Part shown: positions 9,010-39,145 of the stretch, piece by piece
How the letters are laid out: each line of letters opens with the position of its first letter
How positions within the stretch are numbered: position 1 is the first letter of the stretch
Source: a virus
IMG/VR virus record: IMGVR_UViG_3300038469_000278
Location: 1 to 40,609 of that record
Reading direction: 5' to 3' (one strand)
Length of the DNA stretch: 40,609 bases
Made by a program: the position numbers and the translations under genes
Notes under the pieces: generated by a model
What the model was told of the DNA's origin: nothing
What the model saw: the letters and a program-made list of their open reading frames with translations, nothing else
Databases searched by the model: none

Positions 9010-10923
9010 TTATCTCTTGAGCCAATTTTGTCGCTTTCCCAGCCAGCCCGGCTGATTTTTCAGCTCCGTGGGGGCCGCGGGCGCCGGCGGCCGGGGGAGC
9101 ACCAAAAGCCCCCCCCAGCATTCCGGATCGGCCATGGCTGCGGCATAGACTTCGCAATCCAAGAGATGGTTGGGTTGATTGCCTTGCACCTTCCACGCCG
9201 TGCGGCCCCGTTCATCCCGCTCTTTGGCCTCGCTGGACAAATGCCGGGCATAATCCTCCCCGGTTTGGGCGTGCAGGAAAAACTGGCCTGTTTCGATGCG
9301 GCTGAAAATGGCGTCTTTGATCAGTCCGGTGTCCAGCAGCCAGAGACGGATGCCGCCGGGCAGGGGTCTCCCCGAAGGCATCCGGTCAATCAGGCTCATC
9401 TGCATCTTTTTGCCGCCAGCCAAGGCACGGGAGATGCCTTTAACCCCAAACACCCGGCCTTGGCCCTTGCGGCGCAGCCAGGCATAGACCTGCTCCGTCA
9501 TGGTGGCCTCGCCGGCCTCGCCCTCGCCGCCGCCGGTGTCAATCCCGGCCCGCCATACCGGCAAGGCCAGGCCGTCCTCCGAGGTGTAAACATCCTGGAA
9601 CAGCCAGCGCTCCACATCCTCAAACGTATCCAGCCAGCCGTAACGCACCAGGTGAGATTCCGGCGGCTCCAGCCGCCAGGCCCGGATCACGCACCAGAAC
9701 CCTCGTATGTGCGTGTCGAGGCCCGCGGTCAGAGCCGCCGCGCCGGCCGGGACCACCAGGGGCCGGCGTTCGGTGCGCAGTTGCAGGAGAGCCGAAGCCG
9801 GGCGCACATTGATCACCTCTTTCCAGGGTTCGGCCAGCCATTGGGTCTTGAAATTCCTGAGTTTGTCCCGATCCCCCCGGGTATCAAAAAACTCCGCGGC
9901 CGCCTCCGAAAAGTTTTTAAACGGCGAATATAGGACATTCCACCAAAAACCCGCATGCGACACCGCGGGAACAGGGGGCATGGCCCCGGTGGCCTGGTCA
10001 AACGGGTGATCTTCCGGGACCCAGCGGCCCTGCTGCAGCATGGCCGGCTTGTCCTTATCATCAATTTCCGCCCGGCAATGCTCGCATTCATAGCGGGCCG
10101 CCCGGGCGGCCTTGATATATTCCGGGTCCCGGTGGTTTTCCGGCCACTGGCCCAATATCTCCCCTTTATGCTTGACCTGCCAAAAGGACAGCACTTGAAA
10201 CCAACCGCAATGCGGGCAGGGCACCCAGAACTTGCGCCGGTCGCTGCGCAGATATTCCTGATATATATGCCCGTCCGGCACCGTAGGCCGGGAGAGTTTG
10301 ATGATCTTGCGGTTCCAATAAGTAGTGGAACGGTCCACCGCCATTTTGACGGCGCCGGGCGGATACAGGTCGGTTTCATCCAAGAGCAGCACCCGGGCCT
10401 CCACGAATTGCAAATCCGCTTCCGAGCCCGCAGTGCCGAAAAAAATCTCCATGCGATCCAGGTGAAAGCTCTCATACCGCAGATCATCCGGGTCAGAGGT
10501 CACATGGCCGAGGAGCTCCTGGCTGGCAAAGAGCATCTGGCGCAGCCGGCGGTTCACCTTTTTCAAAGTTTTCTGGGTGGGCATAATGACCAGGGCCGGG
10601 GCCGGGTCCTGACAGATGGTATAGGCCAGCATATTGTAGGCGCTTTCCGTTTTGGCGGACTGCACGCTGGCCATGATGGTGATCTGCTCCACTCGGCGGT
10701 CATTGAACGCGTCCATGACCCCTATGGCATAAGGAGTCAGGGAATTGCGCCAGGGGCCGGGGATGGCGCTCTGCTTGGGCAGCACCCGGTATTTCTCCGC
10801 CCATTGGCTCACGGTGATATCCTCCGGCGGCGCCCAGGCCGCCTGTTCAGAGGAGAACCAGCCGATAGGCTGCGCCGGCGCGCTGCTTTTTTCAGTAAAG
10901 GAAAGGAAAGAGCTATCCGCCAC
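9010..10923 (-). CDS. Terminase large subunit, lambda gpA family
   Basis: 637 residues, close to lambda gpA (641). The ATPase part has a Walker A-like SVQSAKT at 86-92, the lambda-type variant of the P-loop, and Walker B VLLLDETD at 178-185. CPHCGWFQ and CEHCRAE form a zinc-binding insert near 246-290. The nuclease part begins with AGLDTHIRGFW and includes AGIDTGGGEGEA. It translocates DNA into the prohead through the portal and cuts concatemers. It overlaps the small subunit end by 11 bases. Membership of the gpA family suggests packaging from cos-type ends, but no cos site could be identified by eye. Confidence 0.95.
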   Translation of the reverse strand: MADSSFLSFTEKSSAPAQPIGWFSSEQAAWAPPEDITVSQWAEKYRVLPKQSAIPGPWRNSLTPYAIGVMDAFNDRRVEQITIMASVQSAKTESAYNMLAYTICQDPAPALVIMPTQKTLKKVNRRLRQMLFASQELLGHVTSDPDDLRYESFHLDRMEIFFGTAGSEADLQFVEARVLLLDETDLYPPGAVKMAVDRSTTYWNRKIIKLSRPTVPDGHIYQEYLRSDRRKFWVPCPHCGWFQVLSFWQVKHKGEILGQWPENHRDPEYIKAARAARYECEHCRAEIDDKDKPAMLQQGRWVPEDHPFDQATGAMPPVPAVSHAGFWWNVLYSPFKNFSEAAAEFFDTRGDRDKLRNFKTQWLAEPWKEVINVRPASALLQLRTERRPLVVPAGAAALTAGLDTHIRGFWCVIRAWRLEPPESHLVRYGWLDTFEDVERWLFQDVYTSEDGLALPVWRAGIDTGGGEGEAGEATMTEQVYAWLRRKGQGRVFGVKGISRALAGGKKMQMSLIDRMPSGRPLPGGIRLWLLDTGLIKDAIFSRIETGQFFLHAQTGEDYARHLSSEAKERDERGRTAWKVQGNQPNHLLDCEVYAAAMADPECWGGLLVLPRPPAPAAPTELKNQPGWLGKRQNWLKR

Positions 10924-14419: not shown

Positions 14420-15037
14420 TTAATATCCGGAATAAATATCTGATTTATTCAGACATTTTTTACAGAGACGGTTGTGGGGACCGCGACTCAAAAAACTTTG
14501 GTCACATCCCAGACAGGTGCTGGTAGCGGGCTTAATTCCTATCTCCCGCTTGAATGCGGCCACTTTTTCCTTGTTCGCCTCTCTGTACCGGCGCTGAGTC
14601 TCGGCCACTTTTTCCTTGTTCGCCTCGTAGTACCGGCGCTGAGTCTCGGCCACTTTTTCCTTGTTCGCCTCGTAGTACCGGCGCTGAATCTCGGCCACTT
14701 TTTCCTTGTTCGCCTCTCTGTACCGGCGCTGAGTCTCGGCCACTTTTTCCTTGTTCGCCTCGTAGTACCGGCGCTGAATCTCGGCCACTTTTTCCTTGTT
14801 CGCCTCTCTGTACCGGCGCTTAGTCTCGGCCACTTTTTCCTTGTTCGCCTCGTAGTACCGGCGCTGAATCTCGGCCACTTTTTCCTTGTTCGCCTCTCTG
14901 TACCGGCGCTTAGTCTCGGCCACTTTTTCCTTGTTCGCCTCGTAGTACCGGCGCTGATACTCGGCCACTTTTTCCTTGTTCGCCTCGTAGTACCGGCGCT
15001 GATATGCCCTGTTTTTTGCCGCCCCCGGGCCCTTCAT
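14420..15037 (-). CDS. 15-residue-repeat protein with C-terminal zinc-binding motif
   Basis: 205 residues: an 11-residue leader, ten tandem 15-residue units of the form x-Q/K-RRY-Y/R-EANKEKVAE, and a 44-residue tail with CLGCDQSF...CKKC (CxxC-x13-CxxC). The repeats predict a long, highly charged single helix. The tail resembles the small zinc modules (F-x-SRGP-x-NR-x-CxxC) of phage DNA-binding proteins and of HNH-associated proteins, but no HNH catalytic residues are present. The start overlaps the upstream stop as ATGA. Unit number is likely to vary between relatives. Function unknown; DNA binding is inferred. Confidence 0.7.
   Translation of the reverse strand: MKGPGAAKNRAYQRRYYEANKEKVAEYQRRYYEANKEKVAETKRRYREANKEKVAEIQRRYYEANKEKVAETKRRYREANKEKVAEIQRRYYEANKEKVAETQRRYREANKEKVAEIQRRYYEANKEKVAETQRRYYEANKEKVAETQRRYREANKEKVAAFKREIGIKPATSTCLGCDQSFLSRGPHNRLCKKCLNKSDIYSGY
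14555..15004 (-). repeat. Ten 45-bp tandem repeats inside the zinc-tail protein gene
   Basis: Each 45-base unit encodes 15 residues. Units alternate between YYEANKEKVAE and YREANKEKVAE types, with first residues Y, T or I, so the array also has a 90-bp higher-order period. Near identity between units points to recent expansion, and read-based assembly may have collapsed some copies. Confidence 0.9.
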
Positions 15038-17709: not shown

Positions 17710-17737
17710 TTGACATATACTTGTATGCCTGTATAAT
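17710..17737 (+). promoter_or_regulatory. Rightward early promoter with operator
   Basis: Perfect TTGACA (17710-17715) and TATAAT (17732-17737) with a 16-base spacer TATACTTGTATGCCTG. The 31 bases from TTTTTC through the -10 region match the leftward promoter except at one -10 position. It fires into the plus-strand accessory operon. With consensus hexamers it should be very strong when not repressed. Confidence 0.85.
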
Positions 17738-18199: not shown

Positions 18200-18331
18200 A
18201 AGGCACGGCAGGCATGGCGTGGCTTGGCCAGGCGAGGCAAGGCAAGGCGTGGCACGGCCAGGCGGGGCAAGGCAGGCGCGGCTTGGCTGGGCGTGGCTTG
18301 GCTGGGCGAGGCCAGGCGAGGCGTGGCAAGA
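18200..18331 (+). repeat. GGC-phased degenerate pentanucleotide array 1
   Basis: About 26 units of NGGCN (for example AGGCA, CGGCA, TGGCG, TGGCT, AGGCC). GGC is invariant at a 5-base period and the two other bases vary freely; two units are shortened to 4 bases. The array ends 31 bases before the next gene. It is not a coding repeat: the period is not a multiple of three and phase slips occur. Array 2 (19001-19154) has the same pattern and orientation. Confidence 0.9.
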
Positions 18332-18362
18332 CCAATAAATTACTGAAATCGGAGAAAATTTC

Positions 18363-18998
18363 ATGACTACGAACAAAAGCAAAAAGGCCGAAGACGGTCA
18401 GTTCAAATCTAAGTTTGAGGTTCAAAACCTTTTTCTTATCCTGCAAGGGCGTCCCGGGTCTTTATTGGTGGTGCATAATTTTTCCGAAAAAGCCAAGCAG
18501 GAAATCCGGGACAAACATGCCAAGAAAGCCCGGCAAAAGAAGGAAGAACGTAGCCCGGGAGAAGAATATCAGGCCGCTAAATACCTCGATGCCGCGGGTC
18601 GGGAGTGCATCCCGGTTACCGCTTTGAAAAAATCCTTTATCAGCGCCGCCACGGCTTTTGACGATATCACCAAAGTCGGATTGCGCCAGGCCCTGTTTGT
18701 CTCCGGCATCAATGGCGCCGGACCGCTGATCCCCATTGAAACGCTGGAAGGCAAGCCCGCAGTCGGCCTCATGCGTGAGGATGCCGTGACCATCGGGCTA
18801 AACACCCGTAACCTCACTTATCGCCCGGAATATTCGGACTGGCAAATCCGCATACGGGTGGAATTCAATCCCCGCATCATCAGCAAAGAACAGCTTTTAG
18901 CCCTCGTCGATCAGGCAGGCTGGGGCGTGGGCATCTGTGAAGGCCGCCCGGAAAAAACCAGCGCCCTGGGCTGGGGCCGCTTCCAGCGGGCTGAATAA
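18363..18998 (+). CDS. Conserved phage early protein of unknown function
   Basis: 211 residues, with GGAG eight bases before the ATG. The C-terminal half carries a pattern I recall from many temperate phages: MREDAVTIGLNTRNLTYRPE, DWQIRIRVEFNPRIISKEQL, GWGVGICEGRPEKTS and a final GWGRFQ. The N-terminal 70 residues are Lys-rich and probably disordered or nucleic-acid binding. No catalytic motif is evident; the alternating beta strands and a Gly-rich C-terminus would fit an RNA/DNA-binding fold. It is the only gene between two GGC pentamer arrays, which suggests it moves as a unit or acts on them. Function unknown. Confidence 0.75.
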   Translation: MTTNKSKKAEDGQFKSKFEVQNLFLILQGRPGSLLVVHNFSEKAKQEIRDKHAKKARQKKEERSPGEEYQAAKYLDAAGRECIPVTALKKSFISAATAFDDITKVGLRQALFVSGINGAGPLIPIETLEGKPAVGLMREDAVTIGLNTRNLTYRPEYSDWQIRIRVEFNPRIISKEQLLALVDQAGWGVGICEGRPEKTSALGWGRFQRAE

Positions 18999-19000
18999 TT

Positions 19001-19154
19001 TGGCCAGGCGAGGCAAGGCGAGGCATGGCGTGGCACGGCTTGGCTTGGCAAGGCAGGCTTGGCTTGGCAGGGCAAGGCAAGGCACGGCTTGGCCAGGCAA
19101 GGCAGGCTTGGCTTGGCAGGGCGAGGCCAGGCAAGGCATGGCACGGCTCGGCAT
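19001..19154 (+). repeat. GGC-phased degenerate pentanucleotide array 2
   Basis: About 30 NGGCN units directly after the stop of the 18363-18998 gene. It contains a longer internal repeat (GGCAGGCTTGGCTTGGCAGG occurs twice), consistent with growth by duplication of multi-unit blocks. As in array 1 a few 4-base units break the phase. GG every five bases on the coding strand would permit two-layer G-quadruplexes in RNA or DNA; this is inference. Confidence 0.9.
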
Positions 19155-20303: not shown

Positions 20304-20564
20304 ATGAGCCGGGATGATACCCTGCAAGAGCCACTTACAGCTCTGCTCCGGGATCGCTGGGATTTGATCAATCAAGACCGGCGCGGTTTCCTGTTTCAAT
20401 CCACCTGCGGCAGCCAGCGCCTTTATGTGGATCACATCGGCATTTTTTATTATGTCAATACCAACGGTCACCTCTGGCGCCGGGCCGGGGCCGCCTCCTG
20501 GAACCGTCTCAGCCTGCGCCCGGACGCCCTCATCCTCCCGGACGGCCAAGAGGTCTGGCTGTGA
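20304..20564 (+). CDS. Small hypothetical early protein
   Basis: 86 residues (MSRDDTLQEPLTALLRDRWD..., FQSTCGSQRLYVDHIGIFYY, ending ILPDGQEVWL). Likely a compact beta-rich domain; not recognised. It is coupled to the next gene by TGATG at 20562-20566, which supports translation. Confidence 0.55.
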   Translation: MSRDDTLQEPLTALLRDRWDLINQDRRGFLFQSTCGSQRLYVDHIGIFYYVNTNGHLWRRAGAASWNRLSLRPDALILPDGQEVWL

Positions 20565-20725
20565 TGGCCGAAATCCGCCTGCTCCTGGCCGAAACCCTGG
20601 GCTGGATGTGCCTTTTCTATGCCGGCCTGGGCCTGCTCCTGATCTGGCGCCAGCACCGCCGGGAGCTGCGTCTCCAGGCCTGGGTCCGCCGCCGGGAGCG
20701 CCTGCGGCGGCGCCTGGGGGAGTAA
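20564..20725 (+). CDS. Membrane microprotein with basic tail (53 aa)
   Basis: A short gene fixed by overlaps at both ends (TGATG at its start, TAATG at its end). MAEIRLLLAETLGWMCLFYA then GLGLLLIWRQ forms one membrane helix, followed by an Arg-rich cytoplasmic tail (RRELRLQAWVRRRERLRRRL). Function unknown. Confidence 0.6.
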   Translation: MAEIRLLLAETLGWMCLFYAGLGLLLIWRQHRRELRLQAWVRRRERLRRRLGE

Positions 20726-21750
20726 TGTTTGACCGTTTATCTCAAGGCCTCTGGTGGGATCGTGCTTGGTCCCTGGTGGAAGGTTGCACCTGGGTTTCCC
20801 AAGCCTGCGATCATTGCTGGTCTGCCGCCATGACTGCCAGGTTCGGCGGCTTTAAAAAAGGTCTTACCGGAAATTGGCCCGGTGAACCAGGAGAGCAGGG
20901 TGGACGGGGCAACCATTTCACCGGCAAAATCATTTGTCGGGAAGACCGCCTGAGCCTGCCCCTTAAAGTCCAAAAGCCCACCGCCTGGGCAGTCTGGAAT
21001 GATCTATTCCATGAAGATGTGCCCATAACTTTTATTGCCCGGGCTTTTAACACCATGGCCAGCGTGACGCCGGGCTGCGGCAAACGCCACCGGCATCAAG
21101 AGGATTGCTGGACAGGCGACCCCCACATTTTTTTGGTGCTCACCAAGCGGCCGAATAGAATGTTCCAGGTTCTTACCGAAGTTTTACCCAATTATGTTGG
21201 GGAATTTTTTCCCGGCGATTCGCCTTTGTGCTCGGCCTTGGAAGCCGGGCGCTGGCCCTTGGCCAACGTCTGGCTCGGCGTCACCGTTGAAGATCAAGAG
21301 CAGGCTGACAAGAGGATACCCTTGCTCCTGCAAGCTCCCGCAACGCTGCGATTTCTGAGCGTAGAGCCGATGCTGGGAAGGATTGCTTTGGAACAATCAT
21401 GGTGGAAAGGAAGCCCTCCATATCTACCCTGGCATGGAGCTATCCCTAACACATGGCTTCATTGGGTCATCTGCGGCGGTGAATCCGGCCCCAGGAGCAA
21501 ACCCATGCACCCTGATTGGGTCCGAAATCTGCGGGATCAATGTCAGGAGGCGAGGGTGCCATTTTTCTTTAAGCAGTGGGGAGAATGGGCACCGGATTGT
21601 TTCTGTCAAACTCTTTTCCCTCATAAAAATATACCCAGGCCAGAACCTGGGAGAATGGGTATCATGTTTCGTTGTGGCAAAAAAGCCGCCGGCCGTCTCC
21701 TGGATGGTCGCACCTGGGATGAAATGCCTTTTATCGAAAACCCTCTTTAA
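20725..21750 (+). CDS. Phage Gp37/Gp68-family protein (DUF5131-like)
   Basis: 341 residues starting at 20725, where TAATG couples it to the preceding gene. The N-terminal GCTWVSQACDHCWSAAMTAR matches the family's Cys signature (C-x6-C-x2-C) and later motifs fit: FLVLTKRPNRM, NVWLGVTVEDQEQADKRIPL, LRFLSVEPMLG, WVICGGESGPRSKPMHPDWV and PFFFKQWGEW. The fold is thought to be related to radical-SAM barrels, but the reaction is not established. The usual WNP-x-TGC entry is altered here (RAWSLVEGC). The sequence around 21180-21700 has lower G+C and rarer codons, suggesting recent acquisition. Confidence 0.85.
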   Translation: MFDRLSQGLWWDRAWSLVEGCTWVSQACDHCWSAAMTARFGGFKKGLTGNWPGEPGEQGGRGNHFTGKIICREDRLSLPLKVQKPTAWAVWNDLFHEDVPITFIARAFNTMASVTPGCGKRHRHQEDCWTGDPHIFLVLTKRPNRMFQVLTEVLPNYVGEFFPGDSPLCSALEAGRWPLANVWLGVTVEDQEQADKRIPLLLQAPATLRFLSVEPMLGRIALEQSWWKGSPPYLPWHGAIPNTWLHWVICGGESGPRSKPMHPDWVRNLRDQCQEARVPFFFKQWGEWAPDCFCQTLFPHKNIPRPEPGRMGIMFRCGKKAAGRLLDGRTWDEMPFIENPL

Positions 21751-34786: not shown

Positions 34787-37227
34787 CAGGCCCCCTGCAT
34801 CAAGGCCGCGGCCAGGTAATCGGCCAGAAGTTGGGCCAACTGCCCGGCATCCAGGCCGGTGATATTGATGCTCAGCTGCCGGGTATTGCGCTCAATTTTA
34901 TCCAGCCAGTTGTTGGTGGGGATCAGCGCATCCGCCAGACTGGCGCCGATTTCCCCGATGGATATTGAGGTGGGCCCGGCCACGATGCCCCGGACCGCCT
35001 CATGCGTAGTCACCCCGATGCCGGCCCCGGATGGAGAGAAGGAGCCGCCCCCACCGCCGCCCAGGAACATCATGCCGATGAGGCCCAAAACGCCCAAAGC
35101 CGCGTTGGCAATGGACTTGCCCACGCTGCCGAACAAATCCAAAAACAGGTTTTCCAGCCCGGCCTTCAGGGCCTTGAAGCCCGGCTCCAGGGACTGCTTA
35201 AACAGATCGCTGAAAAAGCGGTGCAGGGCCTGTTGAAGGTCCCGGCCCCCCTGGATGAGGCTGTCCACCAGGTTGCTGATGCCGCCGGCGATGGTCTGGG
35301 CCCAAACCTTGGCCTCTTCGCCGAACCGGGCGATCTGCAGTTGGCGGCCGGCGGCCACATCAAACCGGGCCATAGAGGCGGCGGTCTCCTCCGGCGTGGC
35401 CCCGGCCTGGCCTAATAGTTTCAGCAGTTCTTCCCGGCGCTTTTTTTGCTCTTCCAGGAGCTTGAGAATGGCGAATTCCCGCTGTTCCAGTTCGGTGAAC
35501 GCGGCCTTGCCTTCTTCATCCAGGATCAGATCGGTGATTTTCTGGCGGGCCTCGATCTGCTCCTGTAAAATTTCCACCAGGCGCTTTTCATCTTCCAGGC
35601 GGGTCCGGGTCTTTTCGGCGTTCAGGGAAATAAGCCGGGTCTCATGCTCCAGGAGGAGTTTCTTGCCCATGAGGTCCCCGGCCTCAGGGCTCACCTGGCT
35701 CGATGCGATACGGGCCTGCAACTCCTTGACGGCCAGGTCATAGGCCTCTTTTTCCTTGGCGATCTTCAGATCCAATACCGCCAGAGTTTCCCGGGTCAAG
35801 TCCGCTCCCAATTGGTTGACTTGGCGGTAATAATCCTCCGCGGCAATCAGGCCCGCCTCCAGGTTTCGGGTCAGCTCCGCCTTTTTCAGATCATATTCGC
35901 TCTTCAGGGTCTTGAGGGCTTCTTCCGCGGCCTTGACTTCCTTGTCCCGCTTGGCTTCCAGATAATCGGCCAGGATTTTCAGCAAATCTTCGGCATGCCC
36001 TTTGGTTGCGGCTTTCTCTTCCTGGCGTTTGCGGTCTTCCAGTTCGGGCACGCCGCTGGGCGGCGGGATGCTGACCTTGACCCGGCCCGCCAGGATATCT
36101 TCCGGCGTCCAGCCCCGGCCCGGCCCCACGGGCAGGCCCTCGGCCTGGGCCCGTTTCAGGGCCGCGGCCTGGGCGGCCGCCAAATCGCCCCGGGCCAGGG
36201 ATTTCAGCATCTGAAAATTGGCTTCATCAATCTGCAACGCCTTGGAGAAAGCCTTGGCCCAACCGACGATATTCGGCATGATGTCCCGGATAAATACCAA
36301 GACATCGTAAATGCCGTCCAGGGCCGCTTTGACGCCCTTCAACACCTCCTTCAGGTCGGCCCAGGCATTGCGGATACCGACGATTAGCTCATCCTTGTGT
36401 TCTTTCAGATAGGCATTGATATCTTTGAGCAGATCCACCACATCATCATACAGGCCGGCCAAACCTTCCCGGCCGATGAGCTTCAGATGGGACTGCAGGG
36501 TGTTCTTTTGGGCTTCATAGGTATTCTGGATTTTTTCCAGGGCCGCCTGCAGGCCGGGAAACAGGGAGGCCAAAAACTGCAGGAGATCGCCGGCTTCCCG
36601 GTGCTCTGCGACAATCTTTTCCCAATCCGGGCCGATCCGGTCTTTCAGCATCATGGCCACCGCGCTGGTGGCCTTGGCCTGGCCGTCCACGATGGCCCGG
36701 AGTTCCTGGGCGATCTGAATCTGCTGGTTCATGCCCTGGGTGGATAACTTGATCTGATCCACCAGCAGACCCAGGGCCTGCACGTCCTCCTTGCGGGCCA
36801 CCACCCCCTTTTGCACCAGAATGTTAAAGGCCTGCTGGAGGTCTTGAGCCGTGCCGAAATGCTTGGCCGCCTCCTCCTCCAGGGCCTCGTACATCTCTTT
36901 GGCGAATTCCAGATTCTGGGCCAAGGTGAGGCCGGGATCGCTCTTGTCTTTGGCCAGATTGGTGAGGGTGGCGGCAATGCCGATGGTGGTGACTTGGAAT
37001 TCATCCGCGGCCTGGAACGCGGCCTGGAAGCCTTCCTTGATCTTGCTCAGGGCCAGATACAGACCTGCGCCCAGGGCTACGAAGCTCAGGGCCTGCTTGA
37101 CCTTCTCCCCGGCCCGCTCCGCCATGCCCTGAAAGGAGGCGAGCTGGCCCCGGCCCTCGGCCAGGCCCCGTTTCAGGTCGCTCAAATCCGCGCCCAGTTT
37201 AGCGATTAAGGAGCCTAAGTCTTCCAT
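34786..37227 (-). CDS. Tape measure protein
   Basis: 813 residues, the longest protein in the window and placed after the G/GT chaperones as expected. Long helical coiled coils (residues about 390-600, for example EARQKITDLILDEEGKAAFT), an N-terminal amphipathic part (MEDLGSLIAKLGADLSDLKR), hydrophobic FVALGAGLYLALSKI near 50, and a Gly/Ala membrane-like segment ALGVLGLIGMMFLGGGGGGS near 730-750. It sets tail length and is ejected with DNA. At 813 residues a tail of about 120 nm is expected from the usual 1.5 A per residue. Its last 60 residues are duplicated in the early gene at 19554-19940. Confidence 0.92.
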   Translation of the reverse strand: MEDLGSLIAKLGADLSDLKRGLAEGRGQLASFQGMAERAGEKVKQALSFVALGAGLYLALSKIKEGFQAAFQAADEFQVTTIGIAATLTNLAKDKSDPGLTLAQNLEFAKEMYEALEEEAAKHFGTAQDLQQAFNILVQKGVVARKEDVQALGLLVDQIKLSTQGMNQQIQIAQELRAIVDGQAKATSAVAMMLKDRIGPDWEKIVAEHREAGDLLQFLASLFPGLQAALEKIQNTYEAQKNTLQSHLKLIGREGLAGLYDDVVDLLKDINAYLKEHKDELIVGIRNAWADLKEVLKGVKAALDGIYDVLVFIRDIMPNIVGWAKAFSKALQIDEANFQMLKSLARGDLAAAQAAALKRAQAEGLPVGPGRGWTPEDILAGRVKVSIPPPSGVPELEDRKRQEEKAATKGHAEDLLKILADYLEAKRDKEVKAAEEALKTLKSEYDLKKAELTRNLEAGLIAAEDYYRQVNQLGADLTRETLAVLDLKIAKEKEAYDLAVKELQARIASSQVSPEAGDLMGKKLLLEHETRLISLNAEKTRTRLEDEKRLVEILQEQIEARQKITDLILDEEGKAAFTELEQREFAILKLLEEQKKRREELLKLLGQAGATPEETAASMARFDVAAGRQLQIARFGEEAKVWAQTIAGGISNLVDSLIQGGRDLQQALHRFFSDLFKQSLEPGFKALKAGLENLFLDLFGSVGKSIANAALGVLGLIGMMFLGGGGGGSFSPSGAGIGVTTHEAVRGIVAGPTSISIGEIGASLADALIPTNNWLDKIERNTRQLSINITGLDAGQLAQLLADYLAAALMQGA

Positions 37228-37234
37228 TTCCGCC

Positions 37235-37968
37235 TCAATGGTGCGGGGGTTGGCCAGGGCCCCGGGGCTGCCCGGCGAACCAGGCCAGGGCCGGAGTCAG
37301 GACCGGGCCGGATGGCCGGGCCGGCGGCGACGCATCAGCCAAATCCGCCAGCCAGGCTTTCAGCAGCCGGCCTTCTTTGCTGAAGGCCTCATTGATGCCC
37401 AAAGCCACTCCCAGGGCCCGGCGGATCACCTCGAGGTGCTTGTTCCGCCGGGCTGCCCGGGCCATCAGTTTTACCTGGGCCAGGGTATAGCTGTGCAGGA
37501 GCTCGGGCAGACTGCCGTGGCCCCGGCTGATCAGCTCCTCCAGGGCCTCGCTTAGCTCAAAATCGCCCCGGCCTTGACGACGTTCCTTAAGGCCAGGGTC
37601 AAGAAGTTTTTTAGGTTGTCCCTGTTCACCAGGAGAATGCGCAAGCCCACAGCCGCCTGGGTGCCGGCGTCCACTCCCGCCAAATCAATATCCGGCAAGG
37701 TCAAGCCGATAAGCGGGGGAAAGTGCGGCAAGACGAGAGGTAAGAATTCGACCCAGCGCCGGCGCAAAAACTCTTCGGCATTGTCGAAAGTCAGCCCCAA
37801 CGGCGTCAATTCCTCAATCATGGCCATGAGCACCGCCGCGGCCTTGCCGAACTGGGCCAAGTTCCAGGGCCGCAAAATCAAACGGCGGCTGTCCGGCAGG
37901 GTGATTTCCTCTTCGGGCAGCAGGATCTGAAGCTCATCCGTTTCCGGCGCTTTCTGCAGTTTCGCCAT
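37235..37968 (-). CDS. Tail assembly chaperone GT fusion made by -1 frameshift
   Basis: Reading starts at 37968 and shifts -1 at the slippery site 37606-37612 (A AAA AAC in frame), giving 121 + 123 codons (about 244 aa). After the shift the frame stays open through LLDPGLKERRQGRGDFELSE, ELLHSYTLAQVKLMARAARR to the stop at 37235, without using any start codon in that frame. The T-part (HSYTLAQVKLMARAARRNKH) is typical of GT extensions, which bind the tape measure while G coats it during tail assembly. Only a fraction of ribosomes should make it. Confidence 0.85.
37552..37968 (-). CDS. Tail assembly chaperone G
   Basis: 138 residues (MAKLQKAPETDELQILLPEE..., NVVKAGAILS). Position between the tail tube gene and the tape measure, mostly helical character and the frameshift signal near its end identify it as the lambda gpG equivalent. 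It keeps the tape measure in solution during tail assembly. It starts 17 bases after the tail tube stop, with GGGGGTGA upstream. Confidence 0.85.
   Translation of the reverse strand: MAKLQKAPETDELQILLPEEEITLPDSRRLILRPWNLAQFGKAAAVLMAMIEELTPLGLTFDNAEEFLRRRWVEFLPLVLPHFPPLIGLTLPDIDLAGVDAGTQAAVGLRILLVNRDNLKNFLTLALRNVVKAGAILS
37582..37612 (-). promoter_or_regulatory. Programmed -1 frameshift signal
   Basis: The slippery heptamer A AAA AAC (37612 down to 37606) is in the zero frame of G. Seven bases later CCCTGGCCTT can pair with AAGGCCGGGG (ten pairs, one G-U), forming a hairpin that extends to about 37567 and would stall the ribosome. Site, spacing and hairpin fit a classical bacterial -1 signal. 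Confidence 0.85.
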
Positions 37969-37984
37969 AGATCACCCCCTCAAG

Positions 37985-39145
37985 TTATTCCGACAACGCT
38001 TCCCATTTTCCGAAAGGATACGTGGGATTGTTGTCGTAATCATCCAGGACTACCAGGCTCATGGGCACCTTGAGCGCGTCCCGGGGGTTGAAGGCTAACT
38101 CCCCGTTCGGCTTGAGCTGGCATTTGGGGATGTGGTAATTGCCCTGGAGCCCGGTGCTGGGATGGAACTGCAAGCGGGCCGCCCCCTCTTTGAAGCCCGT
38201 GGTGGCAATGGGCATGGTCAAAGAAGTCCAGGTGGTGTAGGTATAGCTCACCTTGACCTCTTCGCCGTCCACCAGCTTGCCCGCGGCCAGACGGCCGATA
38301 CGGCCCACCTGGAGCTCGCCCGAAGCCAGGCCCGGATCCACGATGTAATCGGTGTTCTGGGTCAAGTTCTGGCGGATGCAGTTCACCGTGGCCGGCGTGT
38401 TCACCGTAGCCGCAGAGGCCCGCAGCCAGTAAGCATTATAGCCGTTCACCGTGGTCTTGGCCCAGTTGGTCTGCGGCGTATGGGTAAAGGCCCCGTCCGC
38501 CTCCATATCCAGGCCCGCGCCGCCGCCGCCCACAATCGCGGTCCAACTGGCGCCGTTCCAATATTCCCAGGTCAGCCCCGTGCCGTAGTCGCCGTTCACC
38601 GACAGGTTGAAATACACTTCCTGCCATTTGGTGTCTTTGCCCAGGTACAGATAATCACTGGTTGCGGCCAGGCCCTCAAAGGGCGTGCCCGCTTCGCTGT
38701 CGGCCTCAATGCTGTTGTCCACCCAGGCGGTCCCGGCATCATGGAGAAAGCACTTGTCCAGAAACTGGCGCACGGTCACGGAACTGATGCCGTACTGCCC
38801 CACGCTGGCCAGCTGCGTTCCGGTCAGGGTCACCTGCTGGTCCGTGACCGTATCCGAGCCCGCGCCCACCGCGGTGATGTCCCCGCCTTTGAAATAATAC
38901 TGGAGATGTTCCAGCACCGGTTCCAGGAGGCGGAAATCGAACTGCACCTCTTCGGAAATGGGGAAGGTCTTGAGCGGGCGCAATTTCCCGGAGCGCTGGG
39001 TTTCCACTTTCAGCTCTTCGGAAGTCGTGCGCATAGTTATATCCGCCGGGTCGATATGCCCCAAATCCCGCATTCCCGAACCCTCATCGAAATACAGAAT
39101 GATGCCGCCCGGGATGGTCAGATTGTCAGTGTTGGGAGGCTGCAT
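37985..39145 (-). CDS. Major tail (tube) protein with inserted beta-sandwich domain
   Basis: 386 residues. The ends look like a tail tube protein (LTIPGGIILYFDEGSGMRDL near the start; NYHIPKCQLKPNGELAFNPR and PMSLVVLDDYDNNPTYPFG at the end). Between about residues 160 and 265 there is an inserted domain (YLYLGKDTKWQEVYFNLSVN, LTWEYWNGASWTAIVGGGGA, NGYNAYWLRASA), a carbohydrate-binding-like or decoration sandwich known from phage virion proteins. The insert would project from each tube ring, like lambda gpV's C-terminal Ig domain. It precedes the G/GT genes, as expected. Confidence 0.82.
   Translation of the reverse strand: MQPPNTDNLTIPGGIILYFDEGSGMRDLGHIDPADITMRTTSEELKVETQRSGKLRPLKTFPISEEVQFDFRLLEPVLEHLQYYFKGGDITAVGAGSDTVTDQQVTLTGTQLASVGQYGISSVTVRQFLDKCFLHDAGTAWVDNSIEADSEAGTPFEGLAATSDYLYLGKDTKWQEVYFNLSVNGDYGTGLTWEYWNGASWTAIVGGGGAGLDMEADGAFTHTPQTNWAKTTVNGYNAYWLRASAATVNTPATVNCIRQNLTQNTDYIVDPGLASGELQVGRIGRLAAGKLVDGEEVKVSYTYTTWTSLTMPIATTGFKEGAARLQFHPSTGLQGNYHIPKCQLKPNGELAFNPRDALKVPMSLVVLDDYDNNPTYPFGKWEALSE

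What the first reader, a model, noticed from the sequence alone, without database searches (positions are those of the whole stretch)
18200..19154. A conserved early phage gene enclosed by two GGC-phased pentanucleotide arrays
Two arrays of about 26 and 30 NGGCN units, in the same orientation, flank exactly one gene (18363-18998). GGC is fixed every five bases while the other two positions vary, with occasional 4-base slips. No coding constraint explains this, since the period is not a multiple of three. The pattern suggests selection on GG/GGC spacing in DNA or RNA: a multimeric protein-binding array, a two-layer G-quadruplex former, or a recombination substrate that moves the enclosed gene as a cassette. 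I have an unverified memory of similar arrays beside related genes in other phages, so this may be a recurrent undescribed element.
Basis: partly seen in the sequence, partly recalled or inferred. Interest (0 to 1): 0.8.

Follow-up and report, generated by a model that had tools for sequence, protein, structure and literature searches.

The report
Phage RNA-guided VIPR system with guide arrays
The gene and the two odd five-letter repeat arrays around it are a VIPR system, a recently reported virus-borne relative of CRISPR in which a small protein uses five-letter-repeat RNAs to find the DNA of rival phages; the '4-letter slips' in the arrays look like marks that separate one guide from the next.

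Summary
Two same-strand GGCNN arrays (18202-18327, 26 GGC; 19002-19152, 31 GGC) flank one gene (18363-18998). It is a VIPR (Viral Interference Programmable Repeat) system. A profile of 76 homologues matches the solved 'SUSP1 Vipr protein' (PDB 36pp, E=2e-43); the model resembles Cas7/Csm3 RAMP proteins; the arrays have the GGY/NN form described in preprint PMC13142463 (2026). Of 40 genome loci chosen by protein alone, 33 carry arrays within 2 kb on the gene's strand, none on the other. G-quadruplex and cassette-moving ideas are not supported. Beyond the preprint's main text: the '4-base slips' are a fixed GGCA junction (85/87 and 60/65 are A), spaced 7-13 repeats apart, with conserved neighbouring dinucleotides. 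In related mycobacteriophages whole GGCA-to-GGCA segments are gained or lost, so they delimit guides. One such guide (phage Quico) matches 19/20 positions, only under the 1-nt-skip code, in the tape-measure gene of Che8, Squirty and Wachhund, with skips on codon wobble bases. The window carries about five guides of 9-12 units; no convincing target was found. Supplement fig. S18 of the preprint ('staggered arrays') may already cover the junction; I could not read it.

The parts
18363..18998 (+). vipr gene: 211-aa RAMP-fold guide-RNA-binding protein (Vipr), phrog_4652
   Evidence: Profile of 76 homologues hits PDB 36pp 'SUSP1 Vipr protein' E=2e-43; single sequence E=1.9e-4; phrog_4652 E=7e-19; AlphaFold2 pLDDT 93, Foldseek best hits Csm3/Cas7
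18202..18327 (+). upstream vrRNA (guide) array, 26 GGC
18207..18210 (+). GGCA guide junction (handle GGCAC-GGCA-GGC)
   Evidence: family statistics
18211..18270 (+). guide LA, 12 units: AT.GT.TT.CA.GA.AA.AA.GT.AC.CA.GG.AA
18271..18274 (+). GGCA guide junction (GGCAA-GGCA-GGC)
18275..18324 (+). guide LB, 10 units: GC.TT.TG.GT.TT.TG.GA.CA.GA.GT
19002..19152 (+). downstream vrRNA (guide) array, 31 GGC; R2 and R3 share a diverged 49-bp tandem duplication
19002..19051 (+). guide R1, 10 units: CA.GA.AA.GA.AT.GT.AC.TT.TT.AA
19052..19055 (+). GGCA guide junction
19056..19100 (+). guide R2, 9 units: TT.TT.AG.AA.AA.AC.TT.CA.AA
19101..19104 (+). GGCA guide junction
19105..19149 (+). guide R3, 9 units: TT.TT.AG.GA.CA.AA.AT.AC.TC
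17710..17737 (+). perfect sigma-70-type promoter (TTGACA-16-TATAAT), candidate promoter of the early transcript reading into the arrays and vipr
   Evidence: consensus match only, 12 of 12

Best explanation
The locus is a VIPR system. The arrays are transcribed in the sense of the gene and cut or terminated into guide RNAs (vrRNAs) of about 9-12 GGCNN units. Vipr subunits, which are Cas7-like RAMP proteins, line up along the RNA, probably one per 5-nt unit. The fixed GGC is held by the protein, and the two variable bases of each unit pair with DNA that has one skipped base between pairs (NNx). The complex then binds and represses genes of competing phages. In this clade the 4-nt GGCA unit with its flanking dinucleotides is the boundary (handle) between adjacent guides. 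Shown here: protein family, fold, arrays, association, boundary and one natural target in a relative. Reported elsewhere for other VIPRs (PMC13142463): RNA binding, the skip code, repression. Inferred: expression and action of this particular copy, and its targets.
For: Vipr identity: (76 of 76 members hit phrog_4652); RAMP fold. Mechanism from PMC13142463. Association: 85 of 120 array-bearing viral contigs encode a homologue; 33 of 40 protein-selected genome loci carry arrays nearby, same strand only; 17 of 17 vipr+ phage records have arrays and 3 vipr- records have none. Junction: GGCA in 85/87 and 60/65 four-nt units, mostly 39-69 nt apart; NN next to the junction conserved within loci (0.18 and 0.16 against about 0.08 elsewhere); whole GGCA-to-GGCA segments gained or lost among cluster F mycobacteriophages; the trait clusters on the Vipr tree (10 changes against 37.7 shuffled). 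Code: NN composition best fits codon positions 1-2; a Quico guide matches 19/20 in the tape-measure gene of Squirty, Che8 and Wachhund, 1-nt skip only, on wobble bases; shuffles of that guide reach 15 at most in 3,000; Quico's own allele matches only 14/20.
Against: No target was found for the window's five guides: 8-unit cores gave chance-level hits in 2.9 million viral contigs. No conserved 3' tail is visible after either array, unlike the SUSP1 and P. fulva vrRNAs. No accessory (vap) gene shared with other loci lies within 3.5 kb. The window protein is divergent (single-sequence E only 1.9e-4 to 36pp; long branch). The skip code was tested on one guide of a relative, not on the window.
Confidence: 0.95

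Rival explanations
1. DNA-binding array: the protein binds the double-stranded GGCNN repeats as an operator, partition or origin site, and the variable bases carry no information.
For: Protein gene and arrays are adjacent and co-occur; phased short repeats are typical of such sites.
Against: RAMP fold and match to a protein solved as Vipr; strict strand bias relative to the gene; NN composition follows codon positions 1-2; a guide of a relative matches a rival phage gene under the skip code; turnover of whole guide segments.
Confidence: 0.03
2. Two-layer G-quadruplex or RNA-structure element that regulates the gene between the arrays.
For: GG every 5 nt permits a two-tetrad G4; the downstream array folds somewhat better than shuffles as RNA (z -2.8).
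Against: Does not explain the fixed C, the GGCA junction at regular spacing, the dinucleotide hypervariability or the tie to a RAMP protein.
Confidence: 0.01
3. Recombination substrate: paired arrays move the enclosed gene as a cassette.
For: Direct repeats on both sides of one gene; a 49-bp tandem duplication in the right array.
Against: Most genome relatives have arrays on one side only, and what varies between close relatives is single guides, not the gene.
Confidence: 0.01

Closest known systems
VIPR systems (Viral Interference Programmable Repeat; preprint PMC13142463; PDB 36pp)
   Same: RAMP-fold protein of about 200 aa encoded by a phage; flanking noncoding arrays of GGY/NN pentanucleotides on the gene's strand; 9-12 units per guide; sits in a temperate phage near repressor and integrase genes
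   Different: No obvious conserved 3' tail; guides follow each other directly and are separated by a 4-nt GGCA unit; no recognisable accessory gene next to vipr; GGY is GGC in every unit
Class 1 CRISPR-Cas (Cas7/Csm3 RAMP backbone)
   Same: Predicted fold and glycine-rich loop; protein expected to oligomerise along a guide RNA; guide segments that come and go between relatives
   Different: No CRISPR repeats and spacers and no other cas gene among the neighbours scanned; one small protein; the guide is read two bases at a time with fixed GGC between

Membership tests
VIPR | Vipr protein: single-RRM RAMP homologue with glycine-rich loop | tested here: met
   36pp profile match E=2e-43; Csm3/Cas7 fold matches; C-terminal GxGxxxRPxxxxxxGxGRF loop conserved in the family. 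The thumb domain was not examined separately.
VIPR | Intergenic tandem repeats of GGY alternating with hypervariable NN beside vipr | tested here: met
VIPR | 9-16 repeats per vrRNA | tested here: met
   GGCA-delimited segments of 12, 10, 10, 9 and 9 units, taking the junctions as guide ends
VIPR | Encoded mainly by phages or proviruses | tested here: met
   Window is a virus record with portal, CI-like repressor and integrase
VIPR | 1-nt-skip (NNx) recognition of DNA of competing elements | tested here: inconclusive
   No target found for the window's guides; met for one guide of the relative Quico
VIPR | vrRNA expressed and bound by Vipr | not testable with these tools
   needs RNA sequencing and pull-down
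VIPR type II (SUSP1 / P. fulva) | Invariable structured 3' tail after each repeat tract | tested here: not met
   Sequences after the two arrays share nothing obvious; only sub-threshold Rfam matches. Not filed as type II.
VIPR type II (SUSP1 / P. fulva) | Adjacent vap gene | tested here: inconclusive
CRISPR-Cas class 1 | CRISPR array of identical repeats and unique spacers plus several cas genes | tested here: not met
   Tandem-repeat scan and neighbour annotation show none near the locus

The most novel reading that the evidence does not exclude
In the large Vipr clade that includes this window, guides are stored head to tail without tails, punctuated by a minimal 'NN-GGCA-GGC-NN' junction that plays the part of a CRISPR repeat, and whole guides are gained and lost between close phage relatives. 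That would make it a CRISPR-like guide memory within VIPR and implies a way of acquiring or exchanging guides. [quoted passage not shown] S18, not readable here), so this may be partly described already.
Probability: 0.45. Interest if true: 0.75.

Novelty: new member of a known kind. Interest (0 to 1): 0.55.

Why it matters
VIPR is a newly reported RNA-guided system thought to predate CRISPR. This locus adds a divergent member. The comparison shows how guides are delimited in the tail-less arrays and gives a natural phage-against-phage guide and target pair in mycobacteriophages that grow on the laboratory strain M. smegmatis mc2 155 (Quico or Florinda against Che8, Squirty or Wachhund). The biology could be tested there directly.

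Tried and rejected
Pfam, NCBIfam and Rfam gave no family. A first target search of all arrays against the fetched contigs showed no excess for the 1-nt skip; that set holds the VIPR contigs themselves, not their likely rivals. Five viral-contig scans with 8-unit cores of the window's guides and one with a BobaPhett guide gave chance-level hits without convincing extension. A 10-unit match of guide R2 to a freshwater phage capsid gene (L353, L355) was rejected: skip not on the wobble base, AT-rich guide, 95 hits. A match of an L030 guide to L025 was left as weak. No vrRNA tail was found after the window's arrays. A profile search of genome contigs with the wide alignments failed; a narrower one worked.

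Full report
The observation. Two arrays in which GGC recurs every five bases lie at 18202-18327 (26 GGC) and 19002-19152 (31 GGC), both on the + strand, on either side of one 211-aa ORF, 18363-18998. Exact five-unit matches number 35 in the window and 0 in 100 shuffles. Elsewhere in the window the longest such run is three units.

The protein. The single sequence matches only phrog_4652, of unknown function. Homologues gathered from array-bearing viral contigs gave an alignment of 76 sequences that hits PDB entry 36pp, 'SUSP1 Vipr protein', at E=2e-43. The window protein alone reaches 1.9e-4. The AlphaFold2 model (pLDDT 93) is closest in the PDB to Csm3/Cas7 subunits of type III and type VII CRISPR complexes (E down to 1.4e-5, TM about 0.4-0.5). 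The conserved C-terminal G-W-G-x-G...RP...G-W-G-R-F loop lies where RAMP proteins have their glycine-rich loop (inference from the alignment and model).

What is known. A 2026 preprint (PMC13142463) reports VIPR systems: a phage-encoded ancestral RAMP protein, Vipr, and vrRNAs of alternating GGY/NN. The NN pairs read double-stranded DNA with one skipped base between them, and the complex represses competing phages. The window locus fits this in protein, fold, array form, strand, array position and phage context.

Association. Of 120 viral contigs fetched by array pattern alone, 85 encode a homologue; some of the others are cut at the array. The converse is unbiased. Forty loci in GTDB genomes were chosen by protein only. 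Of these, 33 carry five-unit arrays within 2 kb on the gene's strand; in total 304 matches lie near the gene on that strand, none near it on the other strand, and 7 farther away. Seventeen of 17 vipr-bearing phage records have arrays. Three records chosen without vipr have none, and five further phages chosen by name have none apart from one simple-repeat match in Fruitloop.

The 4-base 'slips'. Across 90 vipr loci, 87 clean four-nt units occur; 85 are GGCA, in 25 loci, and successive ones are mostly 39-69 nt apart, i.e. 7-13 five-nt units plus one four-nt unit. The independent genome set repeats this: 60 of 65. The dinucleotides just before and after the junction are alike within a locus (identity 0.18 and 0.16), while all other positions are near 0.08. 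Among cluster F mycobacteriophages, whole GGCA-to-GGCA segments are present or absent while neighbours stay the same: ByChance lacks exactly one segment of BobaPhett, and Donkeykong has two that Brocalys lacks. The trait clusters on the Vipr tree: 10 changes against 37.7 for shuffled labels. I read GGCA as the boundary of successive guides. The window then holds five guides, of 12, 10, 10, 9 and 9 units.

The code in this clade. NN composition over 3,718 units is best explained by codon positions 1-2 (sense and antisense mixed) of the same loci, better than by base composition or other frames; a scarcity of C after GGC is a separate bias. Twenty-three delimited guides were searched against 737 kb of 14 phages with 0-3 skipped bases. 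One match stands out, with one skipped base: guide AA.TT.AT.TT.TT.AT.GC.CC.TC.AT of Quico (also in Florinda) against Squirty 10286-10314, 19 of 20, where the next best score with any skip is 15. It lies antisense in the tape-measure gene, with the skipped bases on codon third positions. Shuffling that guide reached 15 at most in 3,000 trials. Che8 and Wachhund carry the same site and differ only at skipped bases. Quico's own tape-measure gene is diverged there and matches only 14 of 20. The single mismatch falls in the unit next to the junction, as expected if that unit belongs to the handle.

Limits. The window's own guides have no convincing target in 2.9 million viral contigs, using exact 8-unit cores, and none in the window itself. 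No conserved tail or accessory gene was found. Expression was not tested. The host of the phage is unknown; its portal protein is at best about 38% identical to those of known phages. The preprint's supplement could not be read, so its description of 'staggered arrays' may already include the GGCA junction.

Verdict. The locus is a divergent VIPR system.

Noticed in passing
L245:6582-7166 and similar genes in 34 vipr loci: A same-strand gene of about 130-180 aa follows vipr directly in 34 loci but not in the window; a candidate accessory (vap) gene with no Pfam family.
   Followed up: partly
window 20425-21750: DUF5131 protein (E=1.7e-71) between the VIPR locus and the integrase; its DNA is about 70-74% identical over 140 bp to genes in actinobacterial and cyanobacterial phages.
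   Followed up: no
window 14557-15002: Ten tandem copies of a 45-bp unit (91% matches), period a multiple of three, probably a coding repeat.
   Followed up: no
L442:17893-18110, L454:16935-17215 and relatives: Cluster F mycobacteriophage vipr arrays share a conserved first full guide (AT.TC.AT.GC.TT.AG.AT.TG.GC.GA.AT) while later guides turn over.
   Followed up: partly
L436 (Mycobacterium phage Gorge, gene 54): The annotated vipr gene of Gorge is much longer (37003-38220) than its relatives, and only its first part matches the window protein.
   Followed up: no
L089, L020: Other vipr-linked arrays have no GGCA junction but repeat a fixed spacer between guides (a short TACCTCA-type one in L089, a roughly 45-nt one in L020), another architecture.
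   Followed up: no
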